From positions 1 through 11,659 of the forward strand of contig JADFGH010000025.1 in the NCBI GenBank assembly GCA_022567775.1: a stretch of 11,659 bases of DNA. Direction: 5' to 3'. A model generated the notes under the pieces. It saw only the letters and a program-made list of their open reading frames with translations, had not been told where the DNA came from and did not search any database. Of this stretch, positions 1 to 10,853 are shown piece by piece. The first letter of the stretch is position 1. Each line of letters opens with the position of its first letter. Made by a program: the position numbers and the translations under genes. The DNA comes from Pseudomonadota bacterium (GTDB lineage Bacteria; Pseudomonadota; Gammaproteobacteria; Steroidobacterales; Woeseiaceae).

Positions 1-1110
1 CCCAAGCAGGAAGCTGCCTGGAATCGAGACACCGACCAGGCTCGCAGCGCGAAACCCGAGAATACCGATGATAACGATGAACACGAGCAGAACCGCGGAT
101 ATAACGCTGTTCTGCAGGTTCGACAGCATTCGATGAACATCTTTGGACTTGTCTCGCGACGCGACGATACTGATGCCAGCCGGCCAGGACCGACGATCGT
201 TCTCGATCAGCGCCTTGATCTCATCGACTGTGCTGATGACATTTGCGCCGCTGCGTTGCACGACTTCAATTGCCAGTGCCGGTTCCCCGTTCAGGCGCGC
301 GTAACTTTCGGCGTCTTTATAGGTGCGCCGTACTTTGGCGACGTCTTTGAAATGAACGATTCGCTCGCCGACAGCCTTGATCGGCATTTCCAGCACGTCC
401 TCGGCAGACTCGAATACACCCGATACCTTTATCGGGAACCTTCCCTCACCGGTGTGCAAAGCGCCGGCAGCTACCAGGCGGTTATTGCGAGCAACCAGAG
501 AAAAAATCTCCGCCTGATCGAGCCCGTAACTCTCCATCGCCAGTGGGTCGACCACCACTTCCAGCAGCTCTTCGCGGACGCCCACAAGATTGACTTCAAG
601 AACACCGGAGACACCTTCGATCTTCTCCTTGAGATCCCTTGCAAGCACGGTCAGCGTTCTTTCGGGAACGTTGCCGGCGAGGTTCAGAACCAGCATCGGA
701 TCGAAACGGGAAAACTTGACTTCCGTTACCGTTGGTTCCTCAGTTTCATTCGGCAGTTTGGCCTTCGCGATATCGACTTTCGCCCGCACATCCTGCAATG
801 CGACATCGGTATCGGTGCCGGCATCGAATTCAATCTGGATATTTGCGCCACCTTCGTAGGCGTTGCCGACCAATTCTTCGATGCCTTCGATGGTCCTGAT
901 TTCCTGCTCCATCGGCCTGATGAGCAGGCGTTCCGAGTCTTCCGGGGAGATGCCCTCATGTTTAATGCTGACGTAGACGATCGGGATATTCAGATCAGGC
1001 TCTGCCTCCTTCGGCGCGTTCGCGTAGGTGACAACACCGGCAATGATAATCACCGCCAGCGACATGATGACGGTACGCGAACGGCGCATTGCAGATTCGA
1101 TAATCTGCAC
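1..1110 (-). CDS. RND efflux transporter permease subunit, N-terminal part (cut by the window edge)
   Basis: This is the inner-membrane, proton-driven pump protein of a tripartite efflux system. Only the first 370 codons are inside the window; the family is usually about 1,000-1,050 residues. Translation from the GTG at 1110 gives a first membrane helix near residues 12-29, then the periplasmic porter domain with the family signatures SPEDSERLLIRPMEQE and RTIEGIEEL. It ends at the second and third helices (NLQNSVISAVLLVFIVIIG, then LVGVSIPGSF). No in-frame stop occurs. The GTG lies 2 nt after the adaptor gene's stop, suggesting translational coupling; an internal ATG at 1089 would cut into the conserved N-terminus, so GTG is preferred. 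The exported substrate cannot be deduced from this part. Confidence 0.93.
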   Translation of the reverse strand, partial: MQIIESAMRRSRTVIMSLAVIIIAGVVTYANAPKEAEPDLNIPIVYVSIKHEGISPEDSERLLIRPMEQEIRTIEGIEELVGNAYEGGANIQIEFDAGTDTDVALQDVRAKVDIAKAKLPNETEEPTVTEVKFSRFDPMLVLNLAGNVPERTLTVLARDLKEKIEGVSGVLEVNLVGVREELLEVVVDPLAMESYGLDQAEIFSLVARNNRLVAAGALHTGEGRFPIKVSGVFESAEDVLEMPIKAVGERIVHFKDVAKVRRTYKDAESYARLNGEPALAIEVVQRSGANVISTVDEIKALIENDRRSWPAGISIVASRDKSKDVHRMLSNLQNSVISAVLLVFIVIIGILGFRAASLVGVSIPGSFLLG

Positions 1111-1112
1111 GG

Positions 1113-2252
1113 TTACTGTTCCAGTTGACCTGACTTGATGGCGACAGCGGTTTCGATTTCGTCTTCGGGAATCGCGTCAACGACGGCGCCCTCATTGACG
1201 AAACCCTGGCCGACCGTAATGATCGTTGCGGAGTAGGGAAGGCCGGCAATCCAGACTCCCTCGCTGGACGACATTGCAATGTCGGCGGAATGAAATTCGA
1301 CAATGCCGGACTCATTGACAACCTTGATGCCCAGGTTGCCTTCGTCGTCGAGCGTCAGCAAAGACGGAGAGACTTTGTGTGCGTAGATTTTTTCTGCCGG
1401 GATTACTAACTCGGCGGTCATTCCCGCCCGCAGTAAACCGTCCGCGTTGTCGATCTCAAGCTCGACATCGAAAGTGCGCGTCGCCTCGTTGGCGACCGGT
1501 GCAATGTAGCGGATAGTGCCACTGACGGTTTGGCCGGTGGCCAGTTTCGCAGTGCCCGGGTTGCCCTTGCTGACGAAATGCGCTTCGTATTCTGCAATGC
1601 TCGCGCTGACAACCAGTGTACGGTCATCAACAATCGTTGCAATCGGGTCACCGAGCTTGACGAAGTCACCGACTTCGACCTGCCGGTCCTGTAGTGCGCC
1701 GTCGAACGGGGCACGAATGACCATGTAATCGACATCCAGCCGGGCCCGGGTAAGTTCTGTGTTTGCGGCTTCCAGCAATGCCTTGGCTTCCTGCAACTGT
1801 GCCTCGGAAACGTAGCTATTGCCCATGAGTTTGGCCCGCGCTTCGAATTCGAGTTCACGTTGTTTGACCGTGGCTTCGGCCTGCAAGAGGCGGGCGCGGC
1901 GATCCCTTTGGTCAAGATTCACGATGACATCGCCGGCGTCGAATCGATCACCCCGTTCCACGCCAATACTGACTACACGTCCGTCCGTTTCAGCATTAAG
2001 TTCTACGATTCTTGCCGGCGCCGTACGGCCATTGACGGTGATGTTCCGGGTGACTTCCACAGCGGTTTGATGTCGTACTCTGACGCTTGTGCGTGGCGCC
2101 GAGGCGACATTCGGATTTTGCTCGCTATCATATGATTTGGTGCCGCCACCAATGTGGCCGCTGGCGAGCCACAGTGCGATTGCAATGGTTATTCCGGCGG
2201 ACGTGAGCCAGGATTTGTAAGGACGCAATTTATTTAATTCTAATTTCAACAT
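1113..2252 (-). CDS. RND efflux periplasmic adaptor (membrane fusion protein, HlyD-like)
   Basis: This 379-residue protein links the inner-membrane RND pump to an outer-membrane channel. An N-terminal membrane anchor (about residues 16-31) is followed by a short linker. The first half of a lipoyl-like domain lies near 75-115 (ETDGRVVSIGVERGDRFDAG). An alpha-hairpin coiled coil (about 118-172) follows, then the second lipoyl half (VIRAPFDGALQDRQVEVGD, about 177-195), a beta-barrel (about 205-285) and a membrane-proximal domain. It has no lipobox, so it is probably anchored by the helix and not by lipid. It starts 31 nt after the padR stop and ends 2 nt before the permease start, so the three genes form one operon. 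No outer-membrane channel gene is visible in the window. Confidence 0.93.
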   Translation of the reverse strand: MLKLELNKLRPYKSWLTSAGITIAIALWLASGHIGGGTKSYDSEQNPNVASAPRTSVRVRHQTAVEVTRNITVNGRTAPARIVELNAETDGRVVSIGVERGDRFDAGDVIVNLDQRDRRARLLQAEATVKQRELEFEARAKLMGNSYVSEAQLQEAKALLEAANTELTRARLDVDYMVIRAPFDGALQDRQVEVGDFVKLGDPIATIVDDRTLVVSASIAEYEAHFVSKGNPGTAKLATGQTVSGTIRYIAPVANEATRTFDVELEIDNADGLLRAGMTAELVIPAEKIYAHKVSPSLLTLDDEGNLGIKVVNESGIVEFHSADIAMSSSEGVWIAGLPYSATIITVGQGFVNEGAVVDAIPEDEIETAVAIKSGQLEQ

Positions 2253-2283: not shown

Positions 2284-2832
2284 TCAGCCTGCTGCAGATT
2301 TGACATCTGCCAGGACTGGCTTCGTCAGCAGTTTGCGATTTTCCTCAATGTAATTCCTGAACGCCGACGCCATGTGTTTGCCGTATCCGGCAACAAATTG
2401 TGCGCCCTGTCCCGTGCCGGGACATTCAATGGACTGGAACTCTTCGATCATCTCCAGGAATTCGTTTATTTCTGCGAGCTTGTTGTCGATCACCGTGTCG
2501 ATTTGCTCAGCCGTCATCAGGTGCGCGAACCACAAGGTCGCCAGGAACTCAGATCGCAATTTGTGCGCGGGGTTCGCATTTGCAAGGCCTTCCATCAGCG
2601 CCTCACGCCCCTTTTCGGTGATGTTGTATACCTTGCGGTCCGGTTTCCCGTCCTGCAGAACCTGCTCGAATTCAACCAGACCGTTTCGCGCAAGCGTGGC
2701 AAGGGCCGGGTAGATTGAGCCGTACCCTGCGGGGAAAAAATGTCCGAACGACGATTCGAAGCACTTCTTCATATCGTAGCCGGAGGCTTCTCCGTCGGTA
2801 AGCATCCCAAGACAAACTGTTTTGACATCCAT
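2284..2832 (-). CDS. PadR-family transcriptional regulator
   Basis: This is a 182-residue PadR regulator, the first gene of the efflux operon. Residues 1-80 form the winged helix: the start MDVKTVCLGML is typical of PadR, YGSIYPALATLARNGLVE (about 37-54) is the recognition helix, and GKPDRKVYNITEKGREAL (about 62-79) is the wing. The C-terminal half (about 90-170) is helical, as in the PadR dimerisation region. The reading frame also allows an ATG at 2865, but that ATG lies inside the inverted repeat near the predicted transcription start and has no ribosome site. The ATG at 2832 has a GGGA box upstream and gives the canonical N-terminus. PadR proteins commonly repress a neighbouring efflux operon and themselves and are released by a ligand; that role here is inferred. 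Confidence 0.92.
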   Translation of the reverse strand: MDVKTVCLGMLTDGEASGYDMKKCFESSFGHFFPAGYGSIYPALATLARNGLVEFEQVLQDGKPDRKVYNITEKGREALMEGLANANPAHKLRSEFLATLWFAHLMTAEQIDTVIDNKLAEINEFLEMIEEFQSIECPGTGQGAQFVAGYGKHMASAFRNYIEENRKLLTKPVLADVKSAAG

Positions 2833-2863
2833 CAGATTTATTCCCGCCAGTTGTTGCCCGGAC

Positions 2864-2908
2864 ATATATCGGGGCGATGCATACTATCAATTCGATATAT
2901 ATTGTCCA
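2864..2908 (-). promoter_or_regulatory. padR-efflux operon promoter with inverted-repeat operator
   Basis: Reading leftwards, TGGACA (2903-2908) and TAGTAT (2881-2886) are separated by 16 bp, a plausible sigma-70 promoter that would start transcription near 2874, about 40 nt before the padR ATG. A perfect 8-bp inverted repeat overlaps it: CGATATAT at 2893-2900 lies within the spacer, and ATATATCG at 2864-2871 lies just past the start site, with centres 29 bp apart. The layout fits a PadR dimer blocking RNA polymerase. The repeat is seen directly; binding is inferred. Confidence 0.5.
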
Positions 2909-3049: not shown

Positions 3050-3790
3050 TCAGGTGCTGGCGGACTTGGTGGCGACGACGACAATCATGCCCTTCTCGGT
3101 CATTTGCCGACTGATATCAAGGCCGTTGGCCTGCAGACGCTGGTTGATCTCTGCTGTGTCGAGCCTGAGTTTCAGGTAATCGCTGATGTGCATTTTCCAG
3201 GCACCGCCCTCTTTCCGGTACAGCACATCATGCACGTGCACGACAGTGTCCCGGTAATCCAGGAAGCAGGTGAAAATCTGCTGATCGTCGGCCCTGATCG
3301 GCACAAAGCGATCAGCGCCCGCCGGCTCGCTCGATACATAGTCGCGAATTGAATAGACAAACGTACCGCCGGGCTTTAGTGCCCGAGATACCCGGTCGAT
3401 ACATTTATCGACCGCAGCCGTATCCGGAAGATGTACCAGCGTATCGCCCATGCAAACGATCAGGCCGGGCGGCTCGTCGATGTACTGGTCGAATTCCCTC
3501 AGATCAGCGCAAACCGTCGTGATCTGCAAATCGCCTGCGCGCTCCTCCAATTCGTCAAGCAATTCCTGACAGAAATCAATCGCGATAACGCTGAATCCCC
3601 GTTCGGCAAGCGGCAACGACTGACAACCCGGCCCGCAGCCAAGGTCGAGCGCAAGATCACCGTATTCAGGAGAAAGTTCCAGGCTGGCGAACAATTCGAC
3701 GTTGGCCTGATACGCGTTCTCGAAATCCCCGAGGATCCATGAATAGACCGGAGCCAAGAATTCGTCGTAATGATTCCTGACGGATTTCAA
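3050..3790 (-). CDS. Class I SAM-dependent methyltransferase
   Basis: This is a 246-residue cytosolic methyltransferase with the Rossmann fold. The SAM-binding motif I, ALDLGCGPG, lies at residues 47-55. The acidic residue after strand 2 is in IDFCQ (D72). CADLREF (about 94-100) contacts the adenine side, MGDTLVHLPD (about 114-123) is the motif IV region, and ALKPGGTFVYSIRD (137-150) is the post-motif segment. The frame is open back to an ATG at 3826, but that start has no ribosome box. The TTG at 3790 follows AAAGGGG with 7-nt spacing and starts the protein just before the conserved NHYDEFLAPVYSW, so TTG is my choice. The gene begins 51 nt after the FAD oxidoreductase stop on the same strand, so it is probably co-transcribed and under the same riboswitch. 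The substrate is unknown. Confidence 0.87.
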   Translation of the reverse strand: MKSVRNHYDEFLAPVYSWILGDFENAYQANVELFASLELSPEYGDLALDLGCGPGCQSLPLAERGFSVIAIDFCQELLDELEERAGDLQITTVCADLREFDQYIDEPPGLIVCMGDTLVHLPDTAAVDKCIDRVSRALKPGGTFVYSIRDYVSSEPAGADRFVPIRADDQQIFTCFLDYRDTVVHVHDVLYRKEGGAWKMHISDYLKLRLDTAEINQRLQANGLDISRQMTEKGMIVVVATKSAST

Positions 3791-3841
3791 GCCGTTCCCC
3801 TTTCGCCTTTCGCGAACGCATGCCAATGCCAGCGTATTTGT

Positions 3842-5209
3842 TTACAGAAAGTATTGTGACAAAAACGGATTCATCATACGGTTTTCGGGATCGAATTGTC
3901 GGCGGATTTTGCGGAAGAATGTCAGCCGGCTGCCGAACACTTGTTGCGGGTAATCTGCGGGAATATCACGTGTCTGATTGAATATCGGTACGCCGCCCCA
4001 GTGCCGGGCGAAGTCACCAAAGTCAATGGCAAAGTCTTCCCAACCCTGCGCCTGGGTAGAAATCGCGCGCAGCGCCACCATCGGTTCGTCGAAACTGGGT
4101 GACAGCATTGCAGAGGTATCTCTGCCGATGCGAAAGCCCACCGTCGGCATGTCGCAGCGGTAATTACTGCTCTCGTGAATTCTCAAACAGAAGTCGCGAT
4201 ACGCTTGTACGACAATCGCGAAATCTGCGGCAGGAAAGAACCAGGTCGAGTAATACAAGCTGTTGGCGACATCATGCTTCCTGGTGCTGCTTAGTTGCGC
4301 GGTCGAGTTACTGCCCGATGAGACCAGGCGGTTGTTGACCAGTCCTTGTGTTACCTGGCTGATTTCGTCAATCAGGCGATACCGTACACCTGCAAGCGGA
4401 ACAATCCGGTTTATCGACTTGAACACCTTTGGCAATACGGTGCTCTCGCCCCAGTCTTTGATCTTCCAGGGGATACGGCGAGTTGAACGAGCGGCCGGAC
4501 TGTATCGTCTCAGGTCAAGGTATACGCGATCGCGAAACGGCAACAGGTAAAACTTCAGTCCAACGTCTACGTTACTGAGTTTTTCCGCAACGCCGGCAAA
4601 CTGATCGAAACAGCAGCGCCGGTGCGTGACGGCAAATGGTTTGATCGGCCGGACTTTGAGCGTGATCTCATCAATGACGCCGAGCATGCCGAAACTCAGA
4701 CGATATGCATTCAGGAGATTTTGCTGGCTTCGCCGTATTTCGATAGGTTTGCCGTTAGGAGTTATGACGCGAATGCTTTTGACTTGCGACGCAAAAAAGG
4801 CGCCGTCATCGCCGAAAGCCGGACCGATGCAGGCTCCTGCTACTGCGCCGCCGACGGTGCGACTCATAAGGTCGTGACTGCCGCCGAGTTCGAGGCCTTG
4901 TGCCGCAAGTTCGCGGGCGAGGTCGCCGATGCGTACACCGGGTTGCACAGTAACAGTGTCGCCGTATGCGTCTATATTCTTTATCCGATTCAGGCAGGTC
5001 AGATCGATGACGGTGCCAGCGCTGGAGGACGTGCAATCTGTGGCGGAACTATTGGCGCCCATCGGGCGAAATGGCGGCAAATATCTGGAATCCGGATTCA
5101 GCACATCGCGAATTACTCTGCTATTGACAGGTTTTATGATGGTGGGACCGGACAGTCTGTGCAGGCGAAAACGGCTTGAGCGCCGAAGTTGAATCGGGTT
5201 TGCTGACAT
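3842..5209 (-). CDS. FAD-binding oxidoreductase, sugar-lactone oxidase type (VAO/PCMH superfamily)
   Basis: This 455-residue flavoprotein has an N-terminal PCMH-type FAD-binding domain: PFRPMGANSSATDC (46-59), TVIDLTCLNRI (66-76), TVTVQPGVRIGDLARELAAQGL (85-106), and a glycine-rich GGSHDLMSRTVGGAVAG (109-125). The C-terminal half resembles the D-arabinono-1,4-lactone oxidase domain, with ARHWGGVPIF (401-410) and QFDPENRMMNPFL (438-450). In covalent family members a histidine in a GHS motif binds FAD; here the equivalent appears to be GANSS with Asn53, so FAD is probably non-covalent. The frame is open to 5314, but the ATG at 5209 has GGAG with 6-nt spacing, and the longer N-terminus would be the riboswitch leader. 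Such enzymes oxidise sugar lactones or related alcohols; the substrate here is not deducible. No signal peptide is evident. Confidence 0.88.
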   Translation of the reverse strand: MSANPIQLRRSSRFRLHRLSGPTIIKPVNSRVIRDVLNPDSRYLPPFRPMGANSSATDCTSSSAGTVIDLTCLNRIKNIDAYGDTVTVQPGVRIGDLARELAAQGLELGGSHDLMSRTVGGAVAGACIGPAFGDDGAFFASQVKSIRVITPNGKPIEIRRSQQNLLNAYRLSFGMLGVIDEITLKVRPIKPFAVTHRRCCFDQFAGVAEKLSNVDVGLKFYLLPFRDRVYLDLRRYSPAARSTRRIPWKIKDWGESTVLPKVFKSINRIVPLAGVRYRLIDEISQVTQGLVNNRLVSSGSNSTAQLSSTRKHDVANSLYYSTWFFPAADFAIVVQAYRDFCLRIHESSNYRCDMPTVGFRIGRDTSAMLSPSFDEPMVALRAISTQAQGWEDFAIDFGDFARHWGGVPIFNQTRDIPADYPQQVFGSRLTFFRKIRRQFDPENRMMNPFLSQYFL

Positions 5210-5346
5210 TTGTGGCTCCAAAATCGAAAGGGACGAAATTCGCGTTGATTCCAGGCAACAAAATGCAGGACCGGTACATAGTTGCTGAGATTGCCAGGCG
5301 AATGCCACCAGCAACGGGCCGCCCGCGAGAACTTCCGGCGATCCGG
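5210..5346 (-). promoter_or_regulatory. Riboswitch leader (expression platform) of the FAD oxidoreductase gene
   Basis: This is the 137-nt untranslated stretch between the aptamer and the ATG at 5209. It holds several hairpins: CCGG/CCGG around 5335-5346, CGGG/CCCG near 5316-5326, and a 7-bp stem pairing 5309-5315 with 5281-5287. None is followed by a U-run, so no intrinsic terminator is visible. CCGGUC at 5269-5274 is complementary to GACCGG at 5343-5348 on the 3' side of P1, a possible switching pair. The ribosome box GGAG is at 5216-5219. Control by translation initiation or by Rho is more likely than intrinsic termination. Confidence 0.55.
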
Positions 5347-5435
5347 TCGGTTTGGCAACCCCGCTGTCATAGGTTTCCCCTTAGACCGGTGGTTTTGCGA
5401 CCCTTTCTTTCGAAAGGTGTGCCTTTGTCAAACGA
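5347..5435 (-). promoter_or_regulatory. Cyclic di-GMP-I (GEMM-I) riboswitch aptamer
   Basis: The minus-strand RNA matches the Vibrio Vc2-type c-di-GMP-I aptamer in every main element. P1 is UCGUUUG (5429-5435) with CAAACCGA (5347-5354), 7 bp with one bulged C. GGCACACC is followed by a perfect 6-bp stem CCUUUC/GAAAGG capped by a GAAA tetraloop (5408-5411). Next come GGGUCGCAAAACC, then CCGGUCUAAG with UAUGAC, which form the 11-nt GAAA tetraloop receptor, then AGCGGGGUUGCC. The residues equivalent to the ligand contacts G20, A47 and C92 are all kept (at 5423, 5396 and 5355). G at position 20 argues for c-di-GMP over cGAMP. Deviations are A for G50 and C for A24. Identification is from memory of the family consensus. 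Confidence 0.9.
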
Positions 5436-5441
5436 GTGAGA

Positions 5442-5471
5442 ATCGTGGCACATGGGCAATCGGGCTGTCAA
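5442..5471 (-). promoter_or_regulatory. Promoter of the riboswitch-FAD oxidoreductase-methyltransferase unit
   Basis: A perfect TTGACA -35 box (plus-strand 5466-5471) and a weak -10 CACGAT (5442-5447) have an 18-bp spacer. Transcription would start near 5435, the first base of aptamer helix P1. The agreement between promoter and aptamer boundary supports both calls. The -10 box matches the consensus at only three of six positions. Confidence 0.5.
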
Positions 5472-10027: not shown

Positions 10028-10741
10028 ATGCGCGGCATTATTGTGATGGTGATGTTCACGGCGAGCCTGGCGAGCGCCGCCTGGAGTGACTATGAAGAGC
10101 AGCGGGAGCTGAAGCTGAGTGCCAGGGATATTGGCACAGTCGATATAGAAGCGGGTTCCGGCAGCCTTGAGATCTCCGGCGTGTCCGGTGCAGACGCAAT
10201 TGCCGTGACGGCGACAATCCGCGTACCGGATCGGGACGATGACAAGGCGCGCAAAATAATCGAGTCCGACCTAGTGCTGACGCTGGAGAAGCAAGGTGAT
10301 ACCGCGGTTCTGAAGGCATATTTCAAACACAAACTCTGGCGCACGGGCGATAGTCCAAGCGTGCAACTGGTCGTGCGCATGCCCGACAATCTGAATCTGG
10401 CGGTAGATGATGGCTCTGGATTCATGTCTGTTGCCGATATATCGGGTGCCATTGACGTTGAAGACGGTTCCGGATCGATCACGATGACGAACGTCGGCGG
10501 CGAGGTTCAGATCGTCGACGGATCCGGATCGATTTCTGTTGATGGCGTCGGCGGCGATATCTCGATCGATGATGGCTCCGGTAGCATCACGGTTCGAGGG
10601 GTCGCAGGCAGCGTGGTCATCGATGACGGTTCCGGCAGCATCAATGTCAGCGAGGTCGAACAGGACCTGATCATTGTGGACGATGGCAGCGGCGGATTGA
10701 ATTTCTCCGATATCAAAGGCCGTGTGAAAAAGGATATTTAA
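10028..10741 (+). CDS. Exported DDGSG-repeat protein, probable beta-solenoid (DUF4097-like)
   Basis: This 237-residue protein has a signal peptide (hydrophobic residues 3-15, cleavage near SLASAA, 13-18). An N-terminal beta domain (about 35-120) opens with IEAGSGSLEISGVSG, a first repeat-like unit. From residue 126 on, six units of about 18 residues follow the pattern (V/I)(D/E)DGSGSIxVxxVxGxxx: they start near 126, 144, 162, 180, 198 and 216. This regular hydrophobic-turn pattern is what a right-handed beta-solenoid with one coil per repeat looks like. It resembles DUF4097/DUF2807-type putative adhesin or head-domain repeats. The frame is open upstream to 9836, but that part includes the REP repeat; ATG 10028 has AAGGGG with 8-nt spacing and creates the signal peptide. 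No lipobox or C-terminal anchor is seen. Confidence 0.88.
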   Translation: MRGIIVMVMFTASLASAAWSDYEEQRELKLSARDIGTVDIEAGSGSLEISGVSGADAIAVTATIRVPDRDDDKARKIIESDLVLTLEKQGDTAVLKAYFKHKLWRTGDSPSVQLVVRMPDNLNLAVDDGSGFMSVADISGAIDVEDGSGSITMTNVGGEVQIVDGSGSISVDGVGGDISIDDGSGSITVRGVAGSVVIDDGSGSINVSEVEQDLIIVDDGSGGLNFSDIKGRVKKDI

Positions 10742-10853
10742 AAACCGGAATCGAACCAGAAAACCGGGGTCGAACCGAAGTTTTCATAGAAAACACTGGA
10801 TTAAGCCGGTCTTTAAGAAAACTTCGGTTCGACCCCTGTTTTCCCGGTTTTCT
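10741..10853. repeat. MITE-like inverted repeat with tandem half-copy
   Basis: The arms 10758-10785 and 10817-10853 are inverted copies of a unit containing GGGGTCGAACCGAAGTTTTC, perfectly matched over that core. A short insertion, TGTTTTC, separates the outer AAAACCGG/CCGGTTTT ends. The 31-bp centre includes CTGGATTAAG. A degenerate direct copy of the arm start (10741-10759, 15 of its first 17 bases match 10760-10776) lies just outside, directly after the stop codon of the repeat-protein gene. No transposase is present. The folded RNA could act as a transcription barrier for that gene. Confidence 0.7.

What the first reader, a model, noticed from the sequence alone, without database searches (positions are those of the whole stretch)
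3050..5471. c-di-GMP riboswitch controlling an FAD oxidoreductase-methyltransferase pair
A clear c-di-GMP-I aptamer stands directly before an FAD-linked lactone-oxidase-like gene, with a SAM methyltransferase 51 nt downstream on the same strand. Known targets of this riboswitch class are mostly motility, adhesion, pili, secreted enzymes and cyclase genes. An oxidase-methyltransferase pair would point to a small-molecule or cell-surface modification pathway switched with the biofilm state. I know of no described pathway of this layout.
Basis: partly seen in the sequence, partly recalled or inferred. Interest (0 to 1): 0.85.

Follow-up and report, generated by a model that had tools for sequence, protein, structure and literature searches.

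The report
c-di-GMP switch on a flavoenzyme gene
In a family of common sea-floor bacteria, an RNA switch of a type known to sense the lifestyle signal c-di-GMP sits right in front of the gene for an uncharacterised flavin enzyme, and switch and gene have stayed together in most related families examined while the genes around them changed.

Summary
The aptamer is real: RF01051 at 5433-5351 (-), 82.9 bits, E 1.5e-15, 141 nt before the ATG (5209) of a FAD_binding_4 oxidoreductase; a methyltransferase follows after 51 nt. Relatives are titled Woeseiaceae. The aptamer-oxidase link is strongly conserved: a same-strand aptamer precedes the gene in 75 of 81 Woeseiaceae loci (75 of 77 with upstream DNA) and in 25 of 32 loci from other families of the order, down to 29% identity. 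The methyltransferase is not: adjacent in 9 of 81 loci and 0 of 32; in two same-genus genomes it persists at a locus where neither oxidase nor aptamer was found. A PadR-RND efflux module downstream has its own conserved upstream element. So the unit is promoter-aptamer-flavoenzyme; the oxidase-methyltransferase pathway is at most a local addition. Likely mechanism: control of ribosome access, most likely repression by c-di-GMP, best seen where the SD lies inside the aptamer (10 of 74 loci); for the window's own leader the sign is unresolved. The enzyme resembles alditol oxidase, aldonolactone dehydrogenase and DprE1 in fold but passes none of the family cut-offs tested; substrate unknown. A new target of a known riboswitch class.

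The parts
5442..5471 (-). probable promoter: TTGACA (5471-5466), 18 nt, CACGAT (5447-5442); would start transcription at the aptamer edge
   Evidence: sequence; of 14 Woeseiaceae loci printed, TTGACA stands in this place in 11 and a TGYGC..[AC]GAT-like element in 14, by eye; the automatic scan did not score it
5351..5433 (-). c-di-GMP-I riboswitch aptamer (RF01051)
   Evidence: 82.9 bits, E 1.5e-15, model 1-87
5354..5362 (-). aptamer 3' strand GGGGUUGCC, which could pair with 5287-5295 instead
5287..5306 (-). candidate anti-aptamer strand GGCAAUCUC (5295-5287) behind a small hairpin GGC-AUUC-GCC (5306-5297)
   Evidence: one compensatory change in each helix among 10 same-genus loci
5223..5244 (-). 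candidate hairpin just upstream of the ribosome-binding site
5216..5219 (-). Shine-Dalgarno GGAG of the oxidoreductase gene
3842..5209 (-). FAD_binding_4 (VAO/PCMH-fold) oxidoreductase, 455 aa, substrate unknown
3050..3790 (-). class I SAM methyltransferase (Methyltransf_25), 246 aa, lineage-specific neighbour, possibly co-transcribed here
2860..2907 (-). inverted repeat ATATATATCGA..CGATATAT with promoter-like TAGTAT between the arms: probable own promoter and operator of the PadR-RND module
   Evidence: present in the 12 loci printed, with changes in L079 and L081, by eye
2284..2832 (-). PadR-family regulator (neighbour, not part of the switch unit)
   Evidence: homologues begin MDVKTV
1113..2252 (-). 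RND periplasmic adaptor (neighbour)
1..1110 (-). RND pump, cut by the window end (neighbour); named from its sequence and its place after the adaptor, not scanned against Pfam

Best explanation
The 5' leader of the flavoenzyme gene is a c-di-GMP-I riboswitch with its own promoter directly in front. c-di-GMP made by the cell's GGDEF proteins binds the aptamer and changes access of ribosomes to the start site of the flavoenzyme gene; the most likely sign is repression at high c-di-GMP. The unit is promoter, aptamer and one gene. In the window's genus and a few relatives the methyltransferase rides along; the PadR-RND module downstream has its own control element. Shown here: the aptamer, its conservation with this gene across an order, absence of both from the syntenic place in two genomes, and the SD lying inside the aptamer in ten genomes. 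Inferred: promoter activity, ligand binding, the sign of the effect, and the role of the enzyme (probably oxidation of a sugar, alditol or lipid-linked sugar).
For: RF01051 match. Aptamer upstream on the same strand in 75 of 81 Woeseiaceae loci, one per locus; four of the six without it begin inside the gene. Aptamer in 25 of 32 loci of other families of the order at 29-48% protein identity, although none of the window's downstream neighbours was found there. Promoter-like elements next to the aptamer in the family. In 10 of 74 loci the start codon follows the aptamer within 1 nt and the SD GGAG is part of the aptamer's 3' strand; that strand reads GGAG in 10 of 10 of these and in 6 of 64 others (56 GGGG, 2 undefined). 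With the aptamer forced, computed SD accessibility falls by more than 0.05 in 28 of 74 loci and rises in 4; among the 18 with a gap of 8 nt or less it falls in 15 and rises in 1. 11 GGDEF matches in the own genome, 10 over the cut-off. The relative Vc2 is called a translational OFF switch (PMC9262584, passages).
Against: For the window's own 141-nt leader the forced aptamer does not change SD accessibility (0.26 to 0.29), so the sign is not shown here; among the 56 loci with longer leaders it falls in only 13 and rises in 3. The leader is no more stable than shuffles (z 0.41). The pairing of aptamer tail with leader beats shuffles in only 9 of 56 loci, and the best partner found for the window there was another segment. 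Five loci of one related family (f9), one of f6 and two Woeseiaceae loci have the gene with upstream DNA but no aptamer found. No ligand binding was measured.
Confidence: 0.8

Rival explanations
1. One reading: the riboswitch controls an oxidase-methyltransferase pair that forms one small-molecule or surface-modification pathway.
For: Short same-strand gaps of 15-72 nt in the 9 loci that have both genes; both would lie on one transcript there.
Against: Adjacent in 9 of 81 Woeseiaceae loci (six of the 81 end too soon to tell) and 0 of 32 outside. Methyltransferase homologue in 12 of 107 genomes of the family at E<=1e-25, against the oxidase in 82 of 107 at E<=1e-40. G029 and G031 have a methyltransferase homologue but no oxidase hit, and no aptamer beside it.
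Confidence: 0.1
2. The riboswitch heads a long operon and mainly controls the RND efflux pump downstream.
For: PadR-adaptor-pump or adaptor-adaptor-pump genes follow on the same strand in most Woeseiaceae loci with enough downstream DNA.
Against: An element of about 48 nt with inverted-repeat arms lies before PadR in the 12 loci printed. Where no methyltransferase intervenes, FAD-to-PadR gaps are 62-365 nt, with two of about 1.7 kb. Two different pump systems occupy the place, and four loci with 4.5-5 kb downstream (L088, L095, L116, L136) have neither. None of these genes was found in the 32 loci of other families.
Confidence: 0.06
3. The aptamer on this gene has drifted to another ligand, for example another cyclic dinucleotide; the Woeseiaceae copies share GGCACA and [U/C]CGCAAA where the other aptamers sampled mostly have GGCAAA and ACGCAAA.
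For: Signature: ACA in 73 of 75 and U or C in 74 of 75 oxidase-linked aptamers, against AAA in 25 of 27 and A in 22 of 27 others. Five of the eight f10 aptamers score best with RF03167 c-di-GMP-I-GGC. Rare variants of this class are known to sense cAMP-GMP (PMC7266159, passages).
Against: The 25 aptamers of other families read AAA (23) or AUA (2) at the first place, none ACA, so the change is confined to one family while the gene link is older. The guanine thought to contact the ligand (G20 of Vc2, numbering recalled) is kept. The window's match to RF01051 is full-length and strong.
Confidence: 0.06

Closest known systems
Vc2 c-di-GMP-I riboswitch of Vibrio (upstream of the tfoX/tfoY-type gene)
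   Same: Class I aptamer in a 5' leader; [quoted passage not shown])
   Different: Controls a regulator gene, not an enzyme; here some relatives have the SD inside the aptamer itself, and the sign for the window's leader is unproven
Alditol oxidase (8ot8, 2vfr-2vfv)
   Different: No His where alditol oxidase has GSGHSF (S in 24 and T in 13 of 37 relatives; that this His carries the FAD is recalled)
L-galactono-1,4-lactone dehydrogenase (8qmy, 8qnb, 7sml, 7a24)
   Different: Only the FAD-binding half aligns well by sequence; ALO domain below Pfam's cut-off
DprE1
   Different: 50.8 bits against a family cut-off of 500

Membership tests
c-di-GMP-I riboswitch (RF01051) | covariance-model match above the gathering score over the whole aptamer | tested here: met
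   82.9 bits against 35, model 1-87 of 87
c-di-GMP-I riboswitch (RF01051) | ligand-contacting bases G20, A47, C92 of Vc2 | tested here: inconclusive
   The window has GGC, GCAAAA and GCC where the consensus has them, but the numbering is recalled and no structure was aligned
c-di-GMP-I riboswitch (RF01051) | binds c-di-GMP selectively | not testable with these tools
   needs in-line probing or calorimetry
c-di-GMP-I riboswitch (RF01051) | placed in the 5' leader of the gene it controls | tested here: met
   75 of 81 Woeseiaceae loci, same strand, 0-156 nt before the chosen start codon in 74 measured; that it is transcribed with the gene is inferred
D-arabinono-1,4-lactone oxidase (PF04030) / TIGR01679 | score over the curated cut-off | tested here: not met
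   22.7 against 23.1 bits; 98.8 against 292.25 bits
DprE1 (NF053785) | score over the curated cut-off | tested here: not met
   50.8 against 500 bits
FAD_binding_4 (PF01565) flavoenzymes | FAD-binding domain over cut-off and VAO/PCMH fold | tested here: met
   72.9 bits; model pLDDT 78.3 with matches to alditol oxidase and relatives
Class I SAM methyltransferase | Methyltransf_25 or _11 over cut-off | tested here: met
   61.8 and 52.1 bits; no NCBIfam model over its cut-off, so no substrate assigned

The most novel reading that the evidence does not exclude
A flavoenzyme of unknown substrate is an ancient, widely kept direct target of c-di-GMP in this order of Gammaproteobacteria, fixed by a leader riboswitch that outlived the changes of gene order; it would mark an undescribed oxidation step, probably on a sugar or lipid-linked sugar of the envelope or matrix, that is set by the free-living versus attached state.
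Probability: 0.4. Interest if true: 0.65.

Novelty: new member of a known kind. Interest (0 to 1): 0.5.

Why it matters
c-di-GMP riboswitches are described mostly before motility, chemotaxis, adherence and related genes (PMC6366702, passages), though one survey counts 114 genes of unknown function in the class I regulon (PMC3766115, passages). The other targets sampled in this family look mostly like surface and secretion genes. A lone flavoenzyme held behind this switch across an order points to a small-molecule step of the c-di-GMP programme in bacteria that are widespread in marine sediments. It gives an entry to a protein family without known substrate and a natural series of leaders, from SD-in-aptamer to platforms of about 150 nt, for studying how one aptamer acquires different expression platforms.

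Tried and rejected
Oxidase-methyltransferase pathway and riboswitch-driven efflux operon: rejected as conserved units.

A single mechanism for all leaders by folding: forced-aptamer folding gave no signal for the window, and anti-aptamer pairing beat shuffles in 9 of 56 loci. In the window's genus the conserved-pair count is better: 92.6% of cells paired against 25.3-46.4% when slid, four pairs with changes on both sides against 0.8 in shuffles; the structure was derived from the same sequences, which favours it, and each double change is seen in one sequence only. A third pairing (anti-aptamer strand with a segment near 5255) looked good in some rows and failed in others; left out.

Intrinsic terminator in the leader: none found by the scan.

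Active-site residues of the aldonolactone family could not be placed, because the C-terminal half did not align well to PDB sequences.

Literature: among the titles and abstract openings listed by searches (lists capped at 8-15 papers) I saw none that describes this riboswitch-oxidase link; one search (c-di-GMP, riboswitch and FAD-binding oxidoreductase together) returned 0 papers. Most subscription papers are not held and I did not see the original GEMM gene lists, so prior listing there is not excluded. Term searches of two Woeseiaceae papers (PMC7082342, PMC12175321) found neither 'riboswitch' nor 'c-di-GMP' in the main text.

Full report
The minus strand carries a full-length c-di-GMP-I aptamer at 5433-5351 (82.9 bits, gathering score 35, E 1.5e-15). 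The next gene on that strand is a 455-aa FAD_binding_4 protein whose start is most likely ATG 5209 with GGAG 6 nt before it, so the leader between aptamer and start is 141 nt. A 246-aa class I methyltransferase starts at TTG 3790, 51 nt after the oxidase stop. The genome is a 2.38-Mb assembly (82.95% complete) with four such aptamers and 11 GGDEF matches, 10 over the cut-off. Named records with the gene are titled Woeseiaceae, Woeseia, or unclassified Chromatiales, Gammaproteobacteria or Proteobacteria (46 loci).

Conservation within the family. The oxidase was found in 82 of 107 genomes of the family at E<=1e-40; 97 of 107 have RF01051 matches. I fetched 80 further oxidase loci (the fragment of G080 was left out) and built a covariance model from 28 aptamers, the window's and 27 others, mostly top-scoring ones. 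It hits the window (by construction) and 74 of 80 loci, once each, always upstream on the gene's strand. Of the six without a hit, four begin inside the gene and two (L107, L135) have upstream DNA; an unfiltered search found nothing convincing in the six (best 13.4 bits, on L134).

Conservation beyond the family. In 296 genomes of the order the gene occurs in 102, of which 32 belong to other families. In 25 of these 32 loci the model finds the aptamer upstream on the same strand, 67-272 nt before the first aligned residue: 8 of 8 in f10, 10 of 10 in f15, 6 of 7 in f6, 1 of 1 in f3, 0 of 1 in f4 (contig ends about 150 nt upstream), 0 of 5 in f9. The f10 protein used as a query is itself named as from a Steroidobacteraceae bacterium by its source (P0121). 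In the 17 aptamers of f3, f6 and f15 the letters are GGU..CACAAA where the 8 of f10 and the 75 of the Woeseiaceae have GGC..CGCAAA, a C-G to U-A exchange at one of Rfam's pairs. In the wider class, 3 of 369 genomes had the gene, one of them outside the order (G632, 31% identity), and no aptamer was found at that locus. Altogether 100 of 113 loci have the aptamer, 100 of 108 if the five with the gene start cut off or at the contig edge are set aside. Relatedness means these are not independent counts.

Neighbours. The methyltransferase follows the gene in 9 of 81 family loci (window, L065-L068, L071, L073, L079, L080), with gaps of 15-72 nt; six of the 81 end too soon to tell. It is found in 12 of 107 genomes at E<=1e-25. 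In G029 and G031, of the same genus, the oxidase search had no hit and no aptamer lies beside the methyltransferase; in G029 the order threonine dehydratase, methyltransferase, PadR, adaptor remains, in G031 threonine dehydratase and methyltransferase. Farther downstream, 52 of 81 family loci have PadR followed by an adaptor (44 PadR-MFP-RND, 6 with the methyltransferase in front, one cut after the adaptor and one whose adaptor match is in two pieces), 15 have two adaptors and a distantly related pump, one has PadR before that second system, three show only the methyltransferase and/or PadR, and ten show none of these, four of them (L088, L095, L116, L136) with 4.5-5 kb of downstream DNA. An element of about 48 nt with inverted-repeat arms precedes PadR in the 12 loci printed, with changes in L079 and L081, so that module seems to have its own control. 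None of these genes was found in the 32 loci of other families (tblastn, E<=1e-4).

How it may work. Immediately before the aptamer, TTGACA stands in 11 and a TGYGC..[AC]GAT-like element in 14 of the 14 family loci printed (by eye), so the aptamer should be the first part of the transcript. Start codons, chosen by script, follow the aptamer by 0-156 nt (median 75.5, 74 loci). In 10 loci the gap is at most 1 nt and the SD GGAG belongs to the aptamer's own 3' strand (10 of 10 read GGAG, against 6 of 64 others). Forcing the aptamer lowers computed SD accessibility by more than 0.05 in 28 of 74 and raises it in 4; for leaders over 8 nt it falls in 13 of 56 and rises in 3. This, with the precedent of Vc2 (PMC9262584, passages), favours repression by c-di-GMP. 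For the window's leader the same computation shows no change (0.26 to 0.29). There, the aptamer's 3' strand can instead pair with GGCAAUCUC at 5295-5287; in 10 same-genus loci this helix, a small hairpin inside it and a hairpin before the SD show 92.6% paired cells and four pairs with changes on both sides (shuffles 0.8, 1 of 500 as high). A test of that pairing against shuffled leaders was significant in only 9 of 56 loci and for the window chose another partner. So an alternative fold is plausible, but its sign is open.

Comparison with other targets. Ten downstream proteins of other aptamers in the family were scanned (34 aptamer loci listed): one M23 peptidase, four with Ig-type (He_PIG) domains, one FHA/AAA protein, one PD40 protein and three without a Pfam match. 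None looks like a small-molecule enzyme, so the oxidase is the exception in this sample. The oxidase-linked aptamers of the Woeseiaceae carry a signature, GGCACA in 73 of 75 and U or C before CGCAAA in 74 of 75, against AAA in 25 of 27 and A in 22 of 27 others, which fits vertical descent with the gene.

Verdict. The riboswitch-flavoenzyme link is real and old; the oxidase-methyltransferase pathway is not a conserved unit. It is a new, well-conserved target of a known riboswitch class, with unknown substrate and, for this window, unknown sign of control.

Noticed in passing
window 10741-10851: Imperfect inverted repeat with arms around GGGGTCGAACCGAAGTTTTC; short pieces of it recur on four other contigs of the own genome. 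It probably explains the spurious microRNA matches; possibly a dispersed palindromic repeat.
   Followed up: partly
window 2860-2907: Conserved element TATATATCGA..GATAGTATGCATCGCCCCGATATAT before PadR in the 12 loci printed (changed in L079 and L081), a likely PadR operator and promoter.
   Followed up: partly
L002, L013, L016, L021, L022, L025, L031, L033: c-di-GMP-I aptamers 71-124 nt before a gene of similar sequence (MN.VIFGKG start) in 8 of 34 aptamer loci; the L002 copy is an M23 peptidase by Pfam, and in the window's genome secA- and lpxC-like ORFs, recognised by eye, flank it: another recurrent target.
   Followed up: no
L005, L008, L015, L026: c-di-GMP-I aptamers before Ig-domain (He_PIG, fn3, Big_9) proteins; similar sequences follow several other aptamers.
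   Followed up: no
L229 3519-3600: In the own genome another aptamer ends at the ATG of a 369-aa protein with no Pfam match; here too GGAG lies in the aptamer's 3' strand.
   Followed up: no
L215, L216, L217, L219, L223: Five of eight f10 aptamers score best with RF03167 c-di-GMP-I-GGC rather than RF01051.
   Followed up: no
G023:C138, G024:C380, G089:C9, G100:C157: The oxidase gene matches in two pieces in G023 and G100 and holds one TGA in G024 and G089; decay or assembly error, not resolved.
   Followed up: no
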